Shown: positions 1-12,419 of the stretch, in pieces
Layout of the letters: each line of letters starts with the position of its first letter
Numbering within the stretch: position 1 is the first letter of the stretch
Translations under genes and position numbers: made by a program
Origin: Anaerolineales bacterium UBA3940
GTDB taxonomy: Bacteria; Chloroflexota; Anaerolineae; Aggregatilineales; UBA3940
Direction: 5' to 3'
NCBI GenBank assembly: GCA_002385675.1
Contig: DGDY01000183.1
Coordinates: 1 to 12,419 of the forward strand
DNA length: 12,419 nucleotides
Notes under the pieces: model-generated
The model's database searches: none
The model's input: the letters and a program-made list of their open reading frames with translations, nothing else
What the model was told of the DNA's origin: nothing

Positions 1-176
1 AAGGAATCTGTTCATTTTGATTACCCAAGACCCCCCCCCCCCCGCTCCCCCGGGCGCGGATCAGCGCCCCCTCCCCGCTGGTGGGGAGTGGGATGGGGGT
101 GGGGGGGACATCAACCACACACATCATCTTTATCTGTGGTGGTTCAGGACTCATCTTCGTTGTAGGTAAGGGAGCC
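1..176. other. Non-coding leader with C-tract and G-runs
   Basis: No credible gene lies here. Visible structure is a run of 13 C (31-43), further C-runs at 47-51, 67-71 and 73-76, then G-runs at 83-86, 90-92, 95-99 and 101-107. The arms 67-76 and 83-92 can pair in 9 of 10 positions as a hairpin with a six-base loop. The four G-runs, separated by 3, 2 and 1 bases, fit a G-quadruplex motif on the coding strand about 70 bases before the TadE-like start codon. Whether this is the end of an upstream unit or a leader element of the pilus genes cannot be told from the window. Confidence 0.6.
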
Positions 177-1465: not shown

Positions 1466-3436
1466 ATGTTCCACTTCATTGAGAGTCTGCTGCCGCGTGG
1501 TGAGGACGGCGAGCGCGAACGCGGCCAGATCGTCGTTCTGCTGGCGCTGGCGATGGTCGGCCTGCTGGTTGCCGGTGGGCTTGCCACCGATGCCGGCGTG
1601 CTGTTCATGCGCAAGTCACAGCTTGACCGCGCGGTGGACGCCGCCGCACTGGCAGGCGTGACGCAGCTCCCCACCGAGACGGATGTTGCGCTGGCGCTCG
1701 CCGCGTCGAACACGCGCGGGCAGCAGCTACTGGCCGCCAACGGCATCATCACGACGACTGCCGCCGAGTGCCTGGAGCCGGGCCACCCCAACTACGCTAA
1801 CCGCTGGAACCTGTACGACTACTGCGGCAAGCGCACACCCGGCGATATGCCCGGTTCGATCCGCTACCACGTCGAGGTGAGGTGGCAGGCGGAAACCTAC
1901 TTCATGAAGCTGGTTGGCTTCGACACGTTCCCGCTGGTGGCAGAGGCGACTGCCGAGTACATGCCGATGGTGGACATCTTCTCCAGCAGTGCGATGGAGA
2001 CGAGCATCCTCCAGTCGTCCAACCAGGCCATCTTCGGCCCGCAAAGCTGCTCCAGCATGGGCGATGCCTACTCGCCGGTTGCCTCGCCCTGGCACGGGGA
2101 GACGAACGGCGTTTACACCTATCGCATTCGCATCCCTGCCGACTATCTGACCCGGCACGACAAGCTGCGCGTCGAGCTGTTCGACCCCGACACCGCGAAT
2201 CGGCGGCAGTCCTCCTATGTCACCTACAACCTGAACGGGGTGCGGCAGACGCTCTCCAGCGATGGCACAACGTGCTCGGGGAATGACCAGAGGGAGCCAT
2301 GCCTGTTCAACAAGGGCACGGCAGCGAACCCCTTCTGGTGGTTCGTCCGCATCGACGAGAACCGCACGAGCCGCACCAGCGGCGATACAGGCTGCGGCAC
2401 GCCGGGTAGCTACACCCCGAACTACAACACTCGTACGGAGTTCCGGCTGTACTACCTGCGCCAGAACCCTGACGGCAGCCTGTCGGAGGTGGACCTGGCC
2501 TACTACATCGGTGAGTCGGATGGGACGAACGCAGCCGAGGCGCTTGCCACCGACATGCACTGGGTTTCGCCCGGTGCACCGGCGGAGGAGCGGATGCCGG
2601 CGTTCACGGTCGGTGACGTGTTTGGTAACCCGACTCGGCCCGATGCAAGCACGATCATGTCGTACGCCGAGCCCGCCACGACGACCCAACCCTGCCCGTC
2701 CTGCTCCGGTGATGGCAACTTCATCATCGACCTGCTGAACGAGACACCGGGCATCTTCGTGGACCCCAGCACGGGCTCGCGTGACATCTTCCTAGATGTG
2801 AAGGCGATCTCCGGCGCGTCGGAGAACGGTTTTGAGCTGTGGGCCGGCCCGCCGCGCTCGTCCGACCCTTACAAGTACTCGGCGCCGTCCTACGTCAACG
2901 CGCGGCAGATCTACCTCCAGCTCAAGAGAAACGCAGACGAGGAGATCCACACCTCTGACGGCGTCGGCATTTATGGCATTGGCCACCTGCCGATGAACTC
3001 GAACACGACCAACCGTGTGGACATCCCGCTCGCGTACCTGGGCCCGGAGTTCGGCGGGCAGCGCATCTATATTGACCTGTTCGACGCAGACTCTGGCACC
3101 CAGCCGCCGATCAGCTTCTACTTCGACACGCTGTCGCGCAGCGACTGGACCGCGTGCTTCGACGACGGTACGGCGAGCAACAACGACTGCGGCAAGGCGC
3201 TGCCGGATGGCCCCGGGGGGAAGCGGGAACATTACCGCGGGCCAGACAACCTCAACCGCAACGGCCAGTGGGCGCGGTATGAGTTTATCATCCCGGGCGA
3301 ACTGGTCGAAGGGGATGTCTCAGATGGGCGGATGCCCTTCTACGGCGGGCGCCTGATCGCCAGCTACGTGGGTGGTAATCATGACACCTACGGCTGGAAG
3401 ATGACCATCGAGTCGCGGCCCTTCCTGGTGAAGTAG
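1466..3436 (+). CDS. TadG-like Flp pilus-assembly protein with duplicated extracellular modules
   Basis: A 656-residue protein anchored by one N-terminal segment. Residues 20-64 match the TadE/G-like N-terminal family: GQIVVLLALAMVGLL, then ATDAGVLFMRKSQLDRAVDA and AALAG. Unlike the upstream protein, the +5 residue after Gly20 is Leu, as is usual in TadG-like proteins. The remaining 590 or so residues are polar, rich in Tyr, Asn, Asp and Gly, and look beta-rich and secreted. Two regions resemble each other: IRIPADYL with LRVELFDPD (221-241) and VDIPLAYLG with IYIDLFDAD (518-542), each followed by a cysteine pair (270/279 and 564/575), which suggests an internal duplication. No von Willebrand A domain with a clear MIDAS motif was recognised, although larger TadG proteins often have one. 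Start: ATG at 1466 with AGAGGT nine bases upstream. Role in pilus anchoring or surface contact is inferred. Confidence 0.85.
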   Translation: MFHFIESLLPRGEDGERERGQIVVLLALAMVGLLVAGGLATDAGVLFMRKSQLDRAVDAAALAGVTQLPTETDVALALAASNTRGQQLLAANGIITTTAAECLEPGHPNYANRWNLYDYCGKRTPGDMPGSIRYHVEVRWQAETYFMKLVGFDTFPLVAEATAEYMPMVDIFSSSAMETSILQSSNQAIFGPQSCSSMGDAYSPVASPWHGETNGVYTYRIRIPADYLTRHDKLRVELFDPDTANRRQSSYVTYNLNGVRQTLSSDGTTCSGNDQREPCLFNKGTAANPFWWFVRIDENRTSRTSGDTGCGTPGSYTPNYNTRTEFRLYYLRQNPDGSLSEVDLAYYIGESDGTNAAEALATDMHWVSPGAPAEERMPAFTVGDVFGNPTRPDASTIMSYAEPATTTQPCPSCSGDGNFIIDLLNETPGIFVDPSTGSRDIFLDVKAISGASENGFELWAGPPRSSDPYKYSAPSYVNARQIYLQLKRNADEEIHTSDGVGIYGIGHLPMNSNTTNRVDIPLAYLGPEFGGQRIYIDLFDADSGTQPPISFYFDTLSRSDWTACFDDGTASNNDCGKALPDGPGGKREHYRGPDNLNRNGQWARYEFIIPGELVEGDVSDGRMPFYGGRLIASYVGGNHDTYGWKMTIESRPFLVK

Positions 3437-3486
3437 GGGCGCGCCTGGGTCTTGCTTCGTGCTGACCTTCTCTTTGCCTCGGTAGA

Positions 3487-3505
3487 GGCGGCTCTCAGAG
3501 CCGCC
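3487..3505. terminator. 8-bp hairpin after the TadG-like gene, possible terminator
   Basis: GGCGGCTC and GAGCCGCC pair perfectly around a three-base loop 50 bases after the TadG-like stop codon. There is no T-run behind it; the dispersed repeat starts immediately. It may end transcription together with the repeat or protect the mRNA 3' end, but it is not a canonical intrinsic terminator. Confidence 0.35.
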
Positions 3506-3565
3506 CAGGGGGCCGGTGTGATGTGCGATGCTTCGCATCAACCGCATCATTAGACCGGCCCCCTG
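3506..3565. repeat. Nested-hairpin dispersed repeat, copy 1
   Basis: Outer arms of 12 bp (3506-3517 and 3554-3565, CAGGGGGCCGGT and its exact complement) enclose a 36-base core. The core contains a second stem (TGATG.G with C.CATCA), and inside it GATGC-TTC-GCATC. The core is 32/36 identical to copy 2 at 5339-5374. Relative to copy 2, outer-stem positions 4 and 10 (counted from the inside) differ on both arms so that pairing is kept. No encoded protein; REP-like or MITE-like DNA, or a structured RNA, are the options. Confidence 0.85.
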
Positions 3566-3633
3566 CTCAATAACAACGGGAGCGCGCAGCGCCCCGACCT
3601 AACGGGGGGAGAATCCCCCATTACGCAGCTATC

Positions 3634-3658
3634 TTCACATACCTATAATTCCTGTGAA
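3634..3658 (+). promoter_or_regulatory. Candidate cpaB promoter inside a TTCACA/TGTGAA dyad
   Basis: A perfect TATAAT lies at 3644-3649; with 17-bp spacing the -35 position is TTACGC (3621-3626), a poor match. TTCACA (3634-3639) and TGTGAA (3653-3658) form an exact inverted repeat with a 13-base spacer centred on the -10 element, a position suited to a repressor. The expected start of transcription is near 3656, leaving a leader of roughly 95 bases before cpaB. The regulator is unknown. Confidence 0.45.
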
Positions 3659-3749
3659 CGCTAGGGGTGGGCAGATAGGTCTTCGACGCGCTCCCGCACG
3701 GGTGGAGCACCCACACCACGCTACTAAAGACTAACTAGGAGAAACAACC

Positions 3750-4970
3750 ATGGGTGCTGGCCGTACCCGGAAAACCGGACTGATTCTCATCGTGTTGATC
3801 CTCGTTGTGCTCCTCATCGCGGTAGGTGCGATCTTCCTGCTGCGGGGCACGCTTTTCGGCGGGCAAGAAGTGGCATCCGACGAGGGCGGACAGTCGCCGC
3901 AGCAGGCGGCCCAGCCGACCGCCCCGCCGACCATCGACATCCTGGTCGCCGCGCGGGACATCCCGCGAGGGAAGCTCATCACCGCCGATGACCTGACGAT
4001 CATGTCATGGCCCGCGATTGAGCAGGCCCCGCCTCCGCTGGGTGTGCTGGTGGTGGACGGGAGCACGGGCGCCGGACTGGAGCAGGCCGTAGGCCGCATG
4101 GCCCGCGCTGACATCCTCGCCGGTTCCCCGGTGCTGGAGACGGTGCTCACCGCTGCCGGGCAGGTCACCGATCTGGCTGACGTCGGCTCCGACGCCGCGC
4201 TGCGTATCCCGTCCGGGTATATCGCCATTGCCGTGCCGGTGACCCGCCTGTCGTCCGTGGCCTACGCGCTACGTGAGGGCGACCACGTGGACGTGCTGAT
4301 GTCGTTCCGCTTCATGGACGTGGACGAGGAGTTCCAGACCGAGCTGCCTAACAACGCCGTCCTTCTGGATGTGGACGAGGAAACGGGCGAACTGGTGGTG
4401 AGGGAGTACCCCGTCGGGCGTGAGGAGCGCGGCATCTTTGGTGACACCATCATGATGGTGCCGGGCGACGGCGAGAAGGCCATACAGCAGACGACGCAGC
4501 TTGTCATCGACAACGCGGTGGTTCTGCACGTGGGCAACTGGCCCTTGAGCGACCTGAACCAGCCGATCGTCGTCACGCCTGAGCCGACGCCGACCCCGGT
4601 CCCCGAAGGCGAGGCCCCGGCGGACGGGCAGACGGCGAGCGCTCAGACCGCGCCCACGCCGGTCCCGTCGCTGCCTGTGCCGGACGTCGTGACGCTGATC
4701 ATGCCGCGGCAGGATGCGCTCATCATGAAGTACGCGATTGAGCAGGGCGCGAGCATCGACCTGGCGCTGCGCAGCGCCGCCGACGACGACGTGCAGGGTA
4801 TCACGACCGACCCAGTCACGCTGTCCTACATCATCAACTCGCGCAACGTGACGCCGCCGGAGAAGCTGCCCATCGCGCTCGATCCGCGCCTCGACAAGCT
4901 GCAAGAACTGGTTGAGGAAGACATCTACGTGGCCCCGCCGCCACCACAGGAAACGGGCGTTGGTAGCTAG
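3750..4970 (+). CDS. cpaB: Flp pilus assembly protein CpaB (RcpC family)
   Basis: A 406-residue CpaB/RcpC protein, which in Tad pilus systems acts in the periplasmic or outer part of the machine near the secretin. Seen: one N-terminal membrane segment (about 10-32); an Ala/Gln/Pro linker; a SAF domain from residue 62 with VAARDIPRGKLITADDL; then the RcpC core, including IPSGYIAIAVPVTRLSSVA (153-171) and REGDHVDVL (175-183); a Thr/Pro-rich linker (276-311); and a final VTLIMPRQDALIMKYAIEQG region (314-333) that is common at the end of this family. ATG 3750 has AGGAGA seven bases upstream. It is longer than many CpaB proteins, mainly because of the linkers. It follows the TadE- and TadG-like genes but is set apart by a 313-base gap with its own promoter candidate. 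No other Tad genes follow in this window. Confidence 0.95.
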   Translation: MGAGRTRKTGLILIVLILVVLLIAVGAIFLLRGTLFGGQEVASDEGGQSPQQAAQPTAPPTIDILVAARDIPRGKLITADDLTIMSWPAIEQAPPPLGVLVVDGSTGAGLEQAVGRMARADILAGSPVLETVLTAAGQVTDLADVGSDAALRIPSGYIAIAVPVTRLSSVAYALREGDHVDVLMSFRFMDVDEEFQTELPNNAVLLDVDEETGELVVREYPVGREERGIFGDTIMMVPGDGEKAIQQTTQLVIDNAVVLHVGNWPLSDLNQPIVVTPEPTPTPVPEGEAPADGQTASAQTAPTPVPSLPVPDVVTLIMPRQDALIMKYAIEQGASIDLALRSAADDDVQGITTDPVTLSYIINSRNVTPPEKLPIALDPRLDKLQELVEEDIYVAPPPPQETGVGS

Positions 4971-4978
4971 GCAAAATC

Positions 4979-5007
4979 TTGCCTCAGAACGTGGATTTGG
5001 GTATGAT
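4979..5007 (+). promoter_or_regulatory. Sigma70-type promoter of the small basic protein gene
   Basis: TTGCCT (4979-4984) and TATGAT (5002-5007) match the -35 and -10 consensus in 4/6 and 5/6 positions with an ideal 17-base spacer. It begins eight bases after the cpaB stop. Transcription would start near 5014, giving a leader of about 33 bases with a strong AAGGAG ribosome site at 5033-5038. Confidence 0.7.
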
Positions 5008-5046
5008 TATGCCCGCTGTGCCAACATCATATAAGGAGTAAAGGGA

Positions 5047-5199
5047 ATGGCAGGTAAGAAGGGCGCTAAGAAGACGGTCGGCAAGGCTCGCAAGGACATG
5101 GGGCCGAAGTCCGTAATGCGTCTCATCTACGTCGCGAAGGAGAACGGCTCGTTCGCACCGAAGTACGAGCGCGTCGCCGATGAGGCGGCAGCGAAGTAG
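5047..5199 (+). CDS. Small lysine-rich protein, 50 residues, unknown function
   Basis: The gene is below common length cut-offs but is well supported: AAGGAG eight bases before ATG 5047, a sigma70-type promoter 40 bases further upstream, and an intrinsic terminator starting 49 bases after the stop. The protein has 10 Lys and 3 Arg against 5 Asp/Glu (net about +8) and no Cys or Trp. Residues 1-21 form a Lys/Ala/Gly tail (MAGKKGAKKTVGKARK at 1-16) resembling histone-H1-like or ribosomal-protein tails; residues 22-43 are more mixed (VMRLIYVAKENGSFAPKYER). There is no signal peptide or membrane segment, so it is probably cytoplasmic and may bind nucleic acid. That role is inference from composition only; I do not recognise the family. 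AAG is the only lysine codon used, which with the strong signals suggests high expression. Confidence 0.78.
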   Translation: MAGKKGAKKTVGKARKDMGPKSVMRLIYVAKENGSFAPKYERVADEAAAK

Positions 5200-5247
5200 C
5201 AGAACGTCGGCAGATTAGCTGAACTACTGCACTGATTGCATAATCGA

Positions 5248-5283
5248 CGCCCTGTGTGGTCATCACACGGGGCGTTTTTTTTT
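5248..5283 (+). terminator. Intrinsic terminator of the small protein gene
   Basis: An 11-bp stem (5248-5258 with 5264-5274, one T-G wobble) has a five-base loop GTCAT and is followed directly by nine T (5275-5283). This is a textbook rho-independent terminator, 49 bases after the stop codon at 5199. On the other strand the T-run would precede the stem, so it acts for the + strand only. Confidence 0.93.
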
Positions 5284-5328
5284 GATCCTCTGGCGGGGGA
5301 ACAACCGTTGCCGCGAATATGCCCTGAT

Positions 5329-5384
5329 AGGGGCGGGTGTGATGCGCGATGTTTTGCATCGACCGCATCATTAGACCCGCCCCT
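5329..5384. repeat. Nested-hairpin dispersed repeat, copy 2
   Basis: AGGGGCGGGT (5329-5338) and its exact complement (5375-5384) flank a 36-base core of the same length as copy 1, with four differences. The middle stem here is a perfect TGATGCG/CGCATCA, where copy 1 has a T-G wobble. The element lies between two converging genes, 12 bases past the stop codon of the DUF4139 gene and beyond the small-protein terminator. Confidence 0.88.
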
Positions 5385-5395
5385 GCAACGCACCT

Positions 5396-7345
5396 CTATC
5401 CACCCGCCTTCTGTTCCAACTCCGTGAGGATCTCCTTGATGCGGGCCTCGGCCTGTTCGATCTGGCGGGTTAGCTCGTCAACCCGTGTGTCGATCGCGTC
5501 GAGCCGGTCCTCGCTGGCGGTAAGCTGCTGCAAGACCCGCGCCCGCAGGTGGCCCTCCTGCCCGGTTGGCTTGAGGGCGTGCAGGTTCTCGCGGAGCTGT
5601 GCCTCGCGCTCGTATACCTCGCCGCGCTCGGCTTTGAGCTTGTCCTGCTCCTGCTTCGCCTGCTCGATGAAGGCCAGGTTGTCGAGCAGCGTGCTCAGTG
5701 CATCGAACGTCGCCTGATCCAGCCAGCGGTCGCGCAGATAGCGCTCCAGGCGGCGGTAGTCGAGGTCCGAGATCTGCTCGTGCCGCGAGGTGAGCCGCCG
5801 CTCGCGGCGGGTGAAGATCGCCTCCCCCCGCGCGCCGACCTCGACCCGCCAGCGGCGCTCAGTGGCCGTCTCGGCGTCAGGCGGTGGCGTGTCGAACAGC
5901 TCGTACTGGCTTGTGACCGGCGCTTCGATGGTGATGACGTGGTCCTGGTCGGTGTCGTTCTCCAGCATGTAGGTGGTGGTCTGCACCTGGTACTCGTTGA
6001 TCAGCAGGTAGCCCTCACGGATCACCAGCCCAGCCATCTCGGTGTGGCGCGCACTGCGTTCGACGACACGCACGCCCAGTTCGACGGCGTAGGCCAGGTA
6101 CACCTCGCTGCCGCTCTTGGTGAAGGGGATCACCGCCTCGCCCCGGTACTCGCCATCCTCGACGATAGTCACGGGCCCGCGCTCCAGCGTCAGGCCGGTC
6201 GTGTTGGCGAAGCGCAGCGCGACGACCGGATGGCTGGGCAGCTTCGCGCCGTTGTACAGAAGTTCGCGCGTGTAGGCGATGTCCGCGCTGATGATGGGCA
6301 CCAGTGCCGACTCGCCGCGCTTGACGCTGACGGGCGTCGTCACCCGGTACTCGAAGAAGGCCCCTGCCTCCTGTCCCTCGGCGACGGGCTGAACTGCCGC
6401 TTCCTCGCGGTCCAGGCCGGCAGCCGGCATCGGCGCGGGCATCTCCCGTGCGGACGCAGCCGCGTCCCCGGCGTACATAGCCTGTATCGGCGGGCGTTTC
6501 GCCAGCCGCCGTTCAGCGCGGAACTCGACCGGGCCGGGTGCGACGCGAGCCTGCTCCTCGATGACCGGGCGCTCCGGGATGCGGGACGAGTACAGGTCGT
6601 AGATGAAGGAGATCGGCTGCCCGGCGACGAGCGTCACGCGCACGTCCTCAAGGTCTTCATCGAAGCGGTTGTCGAACAGCCCCCAGCCCTGCAGCAGCGC
6701 GGTTCCGGTGTCGCTCTGCTCGTCGGTTTCCGCAACGAGACGGTAGCTCACCCGCCAGGTGGGGCTGGGCGCGACGTAGTACACGACCAGCCGATGCGAG
6801 CCTTCGCTCAGGCGCACGGCGACGGTCCGGCTGAGGTCTTCGCTGAGGCTGGTGTCGAGGAAGAAATGCAGGTCGTGTTCGGCACGGGCGTCGAGCAGGC
6901 GCAGGCTGCGCACGTCGCTGAGCCGGTAGGTGGCGACCTCGTTCCCCGGCTCCCGCACGATGGAGACGAGCGTGCTGTCGAGCGGTGCCTGCTCCACGTC
7001 AAACAGGTCGATGCCCGCCATGCGCCCGGTCACGGTTTCACCGTCCACCCGCAGTTCGACGTGCCGCCCGCGCAGGTCGCGGAGCAGGTCGCGCAGGCTG
7101 GCATGGTCCGACAGCCGGATGGAGCTGTCCGCCTGGGCGGCGTCGGCGTCGAGAGGCGTCTGGTAGCGGATGCCGCGTACGTGCCCCTCGCCCTGGTCCA
7201 CCACGACGAGGCTTTTCAGCACGTCGTTGATAGCGTCGTGGCGAAAGGTCAGCGTCACCTCGTCGCCCTCTACCTCGCCTTCCCGTCGGAAGAAGCCGAT
7301 GCCGTGCTTGTAAAGCGTCATCTCGCGTACCGGCAGCTCGCTCAT
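5396..7345 (-). CDS. DUF4139 domain protein with C-terminal coiled coil
   Basis: A 649-residue protein. Seen: an N-terminal beta-rich region starting MTLYKHGIGFFRR (9-21); then hallmark DUF4139 stretches TWRVSYRLV (196-204), GWGLFDNRFDEDLEDVRVTL (220-239) and later LYNGAKLPSHPVVALRFANT (363-382) with LERGPVTIVEDGEYRGEA (387-404). A Met/Pro/Ala-rich linker sits near 286-325. Residues 550-649 are strongly helical with heptad-like Glu/Lys/Leu patterns and should form a coiled coil. There is no signal peptide, so I predict a cytoplasmic location. Relatives include proteins annotated as mucoidy inhibitor MuiA-like, but the biochemical role of DUF4139 is not settled and I assign none. Start: ATG with AAGGAGG four bases upstream (7350-7356). 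It follows the transporter gene by 87 bases, a gap that holds its own promoter candidate, and it ends next to repeat copy 2. Confidence 0.9.
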   Translation of the reverse strand: MSELPVREMTLYKHGIGFFRREGEVEGDEVTLTFRHDAINDVLKSLVVVDQGEGHVRGIRYQTPLDADAAQADSSIRLSDHASLRDLLRDLRGRHVELRVDGETVTGRMAGIDLFDVEQAPLDSTLVSIVREPGNEVATYRLSDVRSLRLLDARAEHDLHFFLDTSLSEDLSRTVAVRLSEGSHRLVVYYVAPSPTWRVSYRLVAETDEQSDTGTALLQGWGLFDNRFDEDLEDVRVTLVAGQPISFIYDLYSSRIPERPVIEEQARVAPGPVEFRAERRLAKRPPIQAMYAGDAAASAREMPAPMPAAGLDREEAAVQPVAEGQEAGAFFEYRVTTPVSVKRGESALVPIISADIAYTRELLYNGAKLPSHPVVALRFANTTGLTLERGPVTIVEDGEYRGEAVIPFTKSGSEVYLAYAVELGVRVVERSARHTEMAGLVIREGYLLINEYQVQTTTYMLENDTDQDHVITIEAPVTSQYELFDTPPPDAETATERRWRVEVGARGEAIFTRRERRLTSRHEQISDLDYRRLERYLRDRWLDQATFDALSTLLDNLAFIEQAKQEQDKLKAERGEVYEREAQLRENLHALKPTGQEGHLRARVLQQLTASEDRLDAIDTRVDELTRQIEQAEARIKEILTELEQKAGG

Positions 7346-8828: not shown

Positions 8829-8863
8829 TAGAACGAGTAAGATTTTGGCCTGAACCCCACCCC

Positions 8864-8889
8864 CGTGCAGTTGCTTCGCCAACTGCACG
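8864..8889. repeat. 10-bp perfect hairpin
   Basis: CGTGCAGTTG and CAACTGCACG pair exactly around CTTCGC. Flanking C-rich (8854-8864) and G-rich (8907-8917) stretches could extend it into a longer imperfect fold. It lies upstream of the Rrf2 promoter and may be an intergenic palindromic repeat; no second copy is present in the window. Confidence 0.5.
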
Positions 8890-8937
8890 CCCTCATTCCG
8901 CATCGCGGGGAGGGGAGGCTCGCTCGATCAGACCGTA

Positions 8938-8958
8938 GCCGCGACGTTTAGTCGCGGC
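8938..8958. repeat. 8-bp perfect hairpin
   Basis: GCCGCGAC and GTCGCGGC pair exactly around the loop GTTTA. There is no T-run, so it is not a canonical terminator. Function unknown. Confidence 0.45.
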
Positions 8959-12354: not shown

Positions 12355-12388
12355 GTGGGGGATCGCGGATTCAATTTCGTGAATTAGC

Positions 12389-12419
12389 AGGGGCGGGTGT
12401 GATGCGCGATGCTTCGCAT
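12389..12419. repeat. Nested-hairpin dispersed repeat, copy 3, cut by window end
   Basis: The left outer arm AGGGGCGGGT (12389-12398) and the first 21 bases of the core are present; the window ends inside the innermost hairpin. Arm and core position 7 agree with copy 2, while the two variable bases around the inner loop agree with copy 1. It lies upstream of the xpt promoter. Confidence 0.82.

What the first reader, a model, noticed from the sequence alone, without database searches (positions are those of the whole stretch)
3506..3565. Dispersed nested-hairpin element with compensating stem changes
Three elements (3506-3565, 5329-5384, 12389 to the window edge) share a 36-base core folded as two stacked stems, enclosed by an outer stem of 10-12 bp. 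Between copies 1 and 2 the core differs at 4 of 36 positions, mostly as C/T changes that keep pairing or turn it into a G-T wobble. Outer-stem positions 4 (C-G to G-C) and 10 (G-C to A-T) from the inside differ on both arms, so pairing is kept. All copies are intergenic. This points to selection on the fold: a REP/MITE moved by a transposase in trans, a protein-binding DNA hairpin, or an RNA element. The unpaired TTAG before the right arm, present in both complete copies, recalls tetranucleotides used by REP-associated tyrosine transposases (inference).
Basis: partly seen in the sequence, partly recalled or inferred. Interest (0 to 1): 0.72.

Follow-up and report, generated by a model that had tools for sequence, protein, structure and literature searches.

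The report
REP-like nested hairpin repeat, Chloroflexota bacterium
Three copies of a short scattered repeat that folds into a hairpin within a hairpin are real, and they most likely belong to a known class of small bacterial repeats (REPs) thought to be spread by a hairpin-cutting transposase, so this looks like a new family of that class rather than a new kind of element.

Summary
In detail: copies at 3506-3565 and 5327-5386, plus a cut-off one from 12387, share a three-level hairpin. All 22 modelled pairs form in both complete copies; three differ on both sides yet still pair (permutation P 0.0014). No genome is held for this Chloroflexota/Anaerolineae-like window, so copy number could not be counted. 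The exact core pattern was absent from genome contigs. Two genomes of the order searched carry kin. G055 has 71 GGGCGGT...ACCGCCC places (9 for the reversed control); about a dozen G055 palindromes carry a similar inner hairpin, one just upstream of a RAYT-like (REP-associated tyrosine transposase) gene. G170 has the inner hairpin twice in another scaffold. Of 31 RAYT-like loci examined, 24 have a GTAG-footed hairpin within 700 bp, against 44 of 416 control windows. Best reading: a REP-type family moved in trans by a RAYT/TnpA-REP. Against it: the foot is CCAG/ATAG/GCAG, not GTAG; a GCAG foot was barely cut by one tested enzyme; no RAYT is seen in the window. Ordinary class, with one curiosity: a shared inner module in two unrelated scaffolds.

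The parts
3506..3565 (+). copy 1, complete nested hairpin; reverse-strand foot GCAG (3563-3566), forward-strand foot CCAG (3505-3508)
5327..5386 (+). copy 2, complete nested hairpin; reverse-strand foot GCAG (5383-5386), forward-strand foot ATAG (5327-5330)
12387..12419 (+). copy 3, cut off by the window edge; forward-strand foot GCAG (12387-12390)
3520..3548 (+). 29-nt inner module of copy 1 (middle stem plus apical hairpin), shared in form with G170
5341..5369 (+). 29-nt inner module of copy 2

Best explanation
The copies are members of a REP-type palindromic repeat family of an uncultured Chloroflexota (Anaerolineae-like) bacterium: non-autonomous hairpins that, by inference, are copied or moved as folded single strands by a HuH/Y1 transposase of the RAYT (TnpA-REP) group acting in trans. 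The fold is kept because the enzyme reads the folded strand: its foot, its GC-rich basal stem and the irregular stretch within it. Shown here: the repeat, the fold, compensating changes, numerous kin palindromes in one genome of the order searched, and one kin copy 38-65 bp upstream of the possible start codons of a RAYT-like gene. Inferred: that the source genome has such an enzyme, that it moves these copies, and that the asymmetric internal loop (GT / ATTAG) plays the part of the bulge known from E. coli REPs.
For: Fold and paired changes between copies 1 and 2. Inner module of copies 1, 2 and two G170 copies: 44 of 44 cells paired, two middle-stem pairs changed on both sides, slid controls far lower. 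Exact 17-mer CGATGCTTYGCATCGAC six times in G055 and in none of the other 153 genomes of the order, reversed control 0. 71 GGGCGGT...ACCGCCC places in G055 against 9 for the reversed pattern. A nested copy at L130:303-338 next to a Y1 protein that matches NCBIfam REP_Tyr_transpos at E 2.6e-19. 24 of 31 RAYT-like loci with a GTAG-footed hairpin within 700 bp (23 of 30 without L130, which I had already seen) against 44 of 416 control windows. GCAGGGGC...GCCCCTGC palindromes in 70 of 154 genomes of the order, 209 places against 14 for the reversed pattern by my sum of the printed rows, in 7 of the 9 genomes of the family nearest by one protein; three printed ones have the same 12-nt arms as copy 3 (left) and copy 2 (right). 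An open frame runs through one G170 copy in a MurG-like gene, as reported for other REPs (PMC3733652, section 15 read).
Against: No transposase in the window and no own genome to search, so neither copy number nor enzyme is shown. The foot is CCAG, ATAG or GCAG, never GTAG; in PMC8266576 any substitution of GTAG abolished binding and cleavage for the E. coli enzyme and a GCAG substrate was barely cut by the S. maltophilia enzyme, though mutations were largely tolerated in a third system (passages). The RAYT-like protein of L130 is below both curated cut-offs (69.6 of 80 and 22.3 of 23 bits). Model R1 scores the kin only weakly (G055 E 0.0096, G170 E 0.115 and 0.41). The G055 nested set alone shows one double change and does not exceed shuffles (204 of 500), and its apical stem is paired in only 82% of cells. 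GGGCGGT...ACCGCCC is not above its control in G005, G164, G170, G431 or G034 beyond 1-4 places. GCAG palindromes are absent from G055.
Confidence: 0.62

Rival explanations
1. A transcribed RNA element: a hairpin at transcript ends or leaders, kept for mRNA stability, transcript ending or control of the neighbouring genes.
For: Copy 1 lies between two co-directional genes and copy 2 between convergent genes, 10 bp past a stop codon; G-U-compatible changes in the stems; literature holds that many REPs are transcribed (PMC3733652, sections 5 and 15 read).
Against: No match to an Rfam family at gathering score; no terminator-like T run at copies 1 and 2, while a separate terminator-like site stands at 5246-5276 (copy 3 was outside that scan); the inner module occurs inside a reading frame in G170.
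Confidence: 0.17
2. A DNA hairpin or cruciform bound by a host protein (for example a gyrase- or IHF-like role), spread long ago and now kept for that binding.
For: Strong fold; REPs of enterics are reported to bind such proteins (passage of PMC6006769).
Against: No binding evidence; copies of such a site need not sit beside RAYT genes, as the kin copy does.
Confidence: 0.1
3. A MITE moved by a DDE transposase through terminal inverted repeats.
For: Near-perfect terminal inverted repeats of 10-12 bp and scattered copies.
Against: No target-site duplication is visible by eye at copies 1 and 2; about 60 nt is short for a MITE (recalled); the kin copy lies beside a Y1, not a DDE, gene.
Confidence: 0.05

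Closest known systems
GTAG-tagged REP superfamily (PMC3733652)
   Same: Short scattered palindromes, mostly intergenic; some published families have loops that are themselves self-complementary (GTAG-14), degenerate feet such as GYAG, and copies inside reading frames; GTAG repeats were reported in Chloroflexi.
   Different: Feet here are CCAG, ATAG and GCAG; three stacked stems; source-genome copy number and RAYT unknown.
Long and 'double foot' REPs beside TnpA-REP genes, subclass 2.4 (PMC6006769)
   Same: Long hairpin with internal irregularity and a foot at both ends (GCAG...CTGC as the counterpart of GT[AG]G...C[TC]AC); in-frame insertions known.
   Different: The published automatic definition allows bulges of 1-3 nt and a GTAG/GTGG foot; here the internal loop is GT / ATTAG and the foot differs.
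Nested palindromes of G055 beside a RAYT-like gene
   Same: GGGGCGG base, apical hairpin CGATGCTTYGCATCGAC in six copies, unpaired bases before the right arm.
   Different: Middle stem of 3 rather than 6 pairs; 5' foot GTAG in 4 of the 6 copies with the exact 17-mer; apical stem looser.

Membership tests
REP, GTAG superfamily | scattered palindrome of about 20-65 nt, mostly between genes | tested here: met
   Three copies in 12.4 kb, two complete of about 60 nt, both intergenic
REP, GTAG superfamily | GTAG (or GTGG) at the foot of the hairpin | tested here: not met
   Forward feet CCAG, ATAG, GCAG; reverse feet GCAG, GCAG. GCAG fits the GYAG degeneracy reported for some families (PMC3733652, section 5), so I do not file it as a strict GTAG REP but as REP-type
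REP, GTAG superfamily | high copy number in the genome | not testable with these tools
   No genome held for the window
REP, GTAG superfamily | RAYT/TnpA-REP gene with the same hairpin beside it in the same genome | not testable with these tools
   Not in the window; met only for kin palindromes in G055
Intrinsic terminator | GC-rich stem followed by a T run | tested here: not met
   None reported at copies 1 and 2 (region 3430-5410 only)
Known structured RNA (Rfam 15) | match at the curated gathering score | tested here: not met
   0 matches in the window
MITE of a DDE transposon | target-site duplication at the ends | tested here: not met
   None seen by eye beside copies 1 and 2; copy 3 is incomplete

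The most novel reading that the evidence does not exclude
The 29-nt inner hairpin is a unit of its own that enters the loops of unrelated palindromic scaffolds. It lies inside GCAG/ATAG-GGGGC palindromes in the window (a shorter form inside GTAG-GGGGC ones in G055) and inside CCYCACCCCC...AGAGGGG elements in G170, and simple scaffolds without it coexist in G055 and G170. If true, hairpins are moved into hairpins, by loop exchange or insertion by a single-strand transposase, which would explain how long, nested REPs arise.
Probability: 0.2. Interest if true: 0.55.

Novelty: new member of a known kind. Interest (0 to 1): 0.3.

Why it matters
If true it adds a REP-type family to an uncultured Chloroflexota order in which RAYT-like matches are common (104 of 154 genomes at E up to 0.001, 7 of them over the curated cut-off), and it offers a case in which one inner hairpin sits in different outer palindromes, a handle on how complex REPs are built. 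In itself the element is of a known kind.

Tried and rejected
Rejected: TTAG as a transposase guide (the same place reads CTAGA, CTTGA or GA in kin). Rejected: intrinsic terminator and known RNA family. Led nowhere: core pattern in viral contigs (0) and in genome contigs (0; exact at 22 specified bases, so looser kin would be missed, as G055 and G170 show for other collections); copy 1 against plasmids (two records, 24 bases each, E 0.5); R1 over 57 sources, no match outside the window. The one hit in a sample of 396 genomes of the class (G431; the sample, drawn evenly, did not list G055 or G170) lies in sequence without the outer stem and I count it as chance. GT[AG]G-footed hairpins in the window (3482-3505 beside copy 1, 8935-8957 and others) are not above shuffles (mean 4.2 per shuffle in that loose scan), so they are not used as evidence. 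Alignment A2 placed the outer stems badly and supports no claim. Alignment A4 had one row shifted by one base and was replaced by A6. Paper searches: 'repetitive extragenic palindrom' with 'anaerolineae' gave 0 papers; REP or RAYT terms with Chloroflexi gave the same two papers. Seen of the papers: PMC3733652 abstract, passages, sections 5, 15, 16; PMC6006769 passages and section 12; PMC8266576 passages only.

Mended since: numbers recounted, the GCAG cleavage results against my reading added, the distance to the RAYT-like gene corrected, and several malformed fields rewritten. The confidence of 0.62 was set after adding the GCAG results.

Full report
What is there. The window carries Tad/Flp pilus-type genes (TadE, TadE/G-like, RcpC/CpaB), a TauE/SafE-like exporter, an Rrf2-like regulator and a phosphoribosyltransferase, and guaA (named from annotated matches). 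Of 80 guaA loci kept out of 589, the best-ranked are mostly Chloroflexota or Anaerolineae MAGs, at up to 69% identity; where a source names relatives of the 649-aa protein beside copy 2, they are mostly Chloroflexi or Anaerolineae. No genome is held for the window. By that protein the nearest of 154 genomes in the order of G005 is G164, at 63%; nine genomes of its family are held.

The element. Copies 1 and 2 fold as three stacked stems: an outer stem of 10-12 bp, an asymmetric loop (GT on the left, ATTAG on the right), a middle stem GATGYG/CGCATC, a second asymmetric loop (C on the left, RAC on the right) and an apical stem GATGY-TTY-GCATC. Folding as DNA beats each of 200 shuffles for both. 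They differ at 10 of the 58 modelled positions; 22 of 22 pairs form in each, and three pairs differ on both sides. Placing the same ten substitutions at random on the same letters keeps as many pairs in 0.26% of trials and as many double changes in 0.14%. With two sequences this is suggestive, and one of the three pairs is the outermost one.

Kin. A degenerate core pattern found nothing in genome contigs or viral contigs. Model R1, built from copies 1 and 2, gave one weak match in 154 genomes of the order (G055, E 0.0096) and two weaker ones in G170, one of nine genomes in G164's family (E 0.115 and 0.41). G055 holds the exact 17-mer CGATGCTTYGCATCGAC six times; the other 153 genomes and the reversed control hold none. 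Five of these six lie in palindromes with a GGGGCGG base and one in a variant without it; the 5' foot is GTAG in four of the six. G055 has 71 places matching GGGCGGT-N4..34-ACCGCCC against 9 for the reversed pattern; in the other five genomes of that call the pattern is at or near its control (G170 1 against 0, G005 4 against 3, G164 3 against 4, G431 1 against 5, G034 5 against 5). Most of the printed G055 places, a capped list, are simple palindromes GGGCGGTTCGCGAACCGCCC. A tighter pattern for the nested form gave 13 rows (control 2): nine full-length nested, one shortened and three unrelated; with the two further copies that makes eleven nested places and one shortened.

RAYT link. In G055 contig C69 (L130) a nested palindrome (303-338, forward foot ATAG as in copy 2, CTAC at 339-342) lies 38-65 bp upstream of two possible start codons of a Y1 protein of up to 178 residues. 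The protein has the HLH motif and a YIASNP stretch (recalled as RAYT-like) and matches NCBIfam REP_Tyr_transpos at E 2.6e-19 with 69.6 bits, below the curated 80, and Pfam Y1_Tnp at 22.3 bits, below 23. Palindromes of the simple form lie at 122-141, 240-259, 946-965 and 1125-1144. The nested copy has GTG/CAC where the others have GCG/CGC; as a set the seven distinct G055 copies do not exceed shuffles, because nearly all other stem pairs are invariant, and their apical stem pairs in only 82% of cells. Across the order 104 of 154 genomes have a match to that family at E up to 0.001, 7 over the cut-off. Of 31 such loci that I examined (L130 and L148-L177; many more matches exist), 24 have a GTAG-footed hairpin with a stem of at least 7 within 700 bp, 12 on both sides; 7 have none. 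L130 had been seen before the count; without it the figure is 23 of 30. In 1850-bp windows cut from 49 guaA loci the figure is 44 of 416. Those control loci come from other genomes, mostly but not only Chloroflexota, so the contrast is indicative. At least one of these loci (L151) has bulged, nested hairpins.

Scaffolds. Palindromes GCAGGGGC-N12..42-GCCCCTGC, the foot and base of the window's element, occur in 70 of 154 genomes of the order, in seven of the nine of G164's family and not in G055; by my sum there are 209 places against 14 for the reversed pattern. Whether they are REPs was not tested. Three printed ones (two in G049, one in G053) have the arms GCAGGGGCGGGT and ACCCGCCCCTGC, the same as the left arm of copy 3 and the right arm of copy 2, around a 6-nt loop in place of the inner part. 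In G170 the 29-nt inner module occurs twice in another scaffold, CCYCACCCCC...AGAGGGG (L106, L107), and a simple version of that scaffold lies 1.1 kb away on L107. Aligned without gaps, the two window modules and the two G170 modules pair in 44 of 44 cells, with two middle-stem pairs changed on both sides; all slid controls score far lower, and shuffles reach the paired percentage and the covariation score in 10 of 500, but the plain number of double-changed pairs in 283 of 500. An open frame runs through the L106 copy in a MurG-like gene, between its two glycosyltransferase-28 domains (residues about 186-208; domains 3-141 and 235-404); the stretch between the scaffold ends that I took is 70 nt, not a multiple of three, and I compared it with no uninterrupted relative.

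Reading. Repetition, fold, paired changes, kin in relatives, the RAYT neighbourhood and the in-gene copy fit REP-type palindromes moved in trans. Published REPs include self-complementary loops, bulged long forms, double-footed forms and insertions in reading frames (PMC3733652: abstract and sections 5, 15, 16 read; PMC6006769: passages and section 12 read). In E. coli the bulge and every base of GTAG are needed, and a GCAG substrate was barely cut by the S. maltophilia enzyme, while a third system tolerated changes (PMC8266576, passages). Here the equivalents would be the GT/ATTAG loop and the GCAG foot, which is inference, and the foot speaks against an E. coli-like enzyme. Because the GTAG foot was tested and not met, I do not file the element as a strict GTAG REP; it looks as if it works like one.

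Limits. Neither copy number nor a transposase could be shown in the source genome. The relatives are unnamed and partly fragmentary. The model scores of the kin are weak, so kinship rests on the shared core (19 of 21 and 18 of 21 bases between L106 and copies 1 and 2) and on the shared architecture. The RNA rival stays open.

Noticed in passing
window 8855-8918 (+) and about 62-104 (-): Two further palindromic elements of the CCCCACCCCC...GGGGAGGGG kind; the one at 8855 carries a different inner hairpin (GTGCAGTTG CTTCGC CAACTGCAC), the same scaffold type that holds the inner module in G170.
   Followed up: partly
window 3482-3505: A GTAG-preceded perfect 8-bp hairpin directly abuts copy 1; hairpins with such feet are not above shuffles in this window.
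   Followed up: partly
window 5047-5199 and 5246-5284: A 50-aa reading frame without a Pfam match, rich in Lys and Gly/Ala at its start, followed by a strong terminator-like hairpin with a T run.
   Followed up: no
window 5396-7345 (-): A 649-aa protein without a Pfam match but with 2753 relatives at E up to 0.001 in the protein collection, where named mostly from Chloroflexi or Anaerolineae: an uncharacterised family.
   Followed up: no
L149 (G055:C200): A second RAYT-like gene of G055 flanked on both sides by the palindrome GTAGCGTCGGAATTGCAATTCCGACGCTAC, another repeat type in the same genome.
   Followed up: no
L159 (G048) and L164 (G047): RAYT-like loci with copies of the 34-nt palindrome AGACTTCGGAAGTCTTCGAAGACTTCCGAAGTCT nearby, without a GTAG foot; perhaps an unusual REP type.
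   Followed up: no
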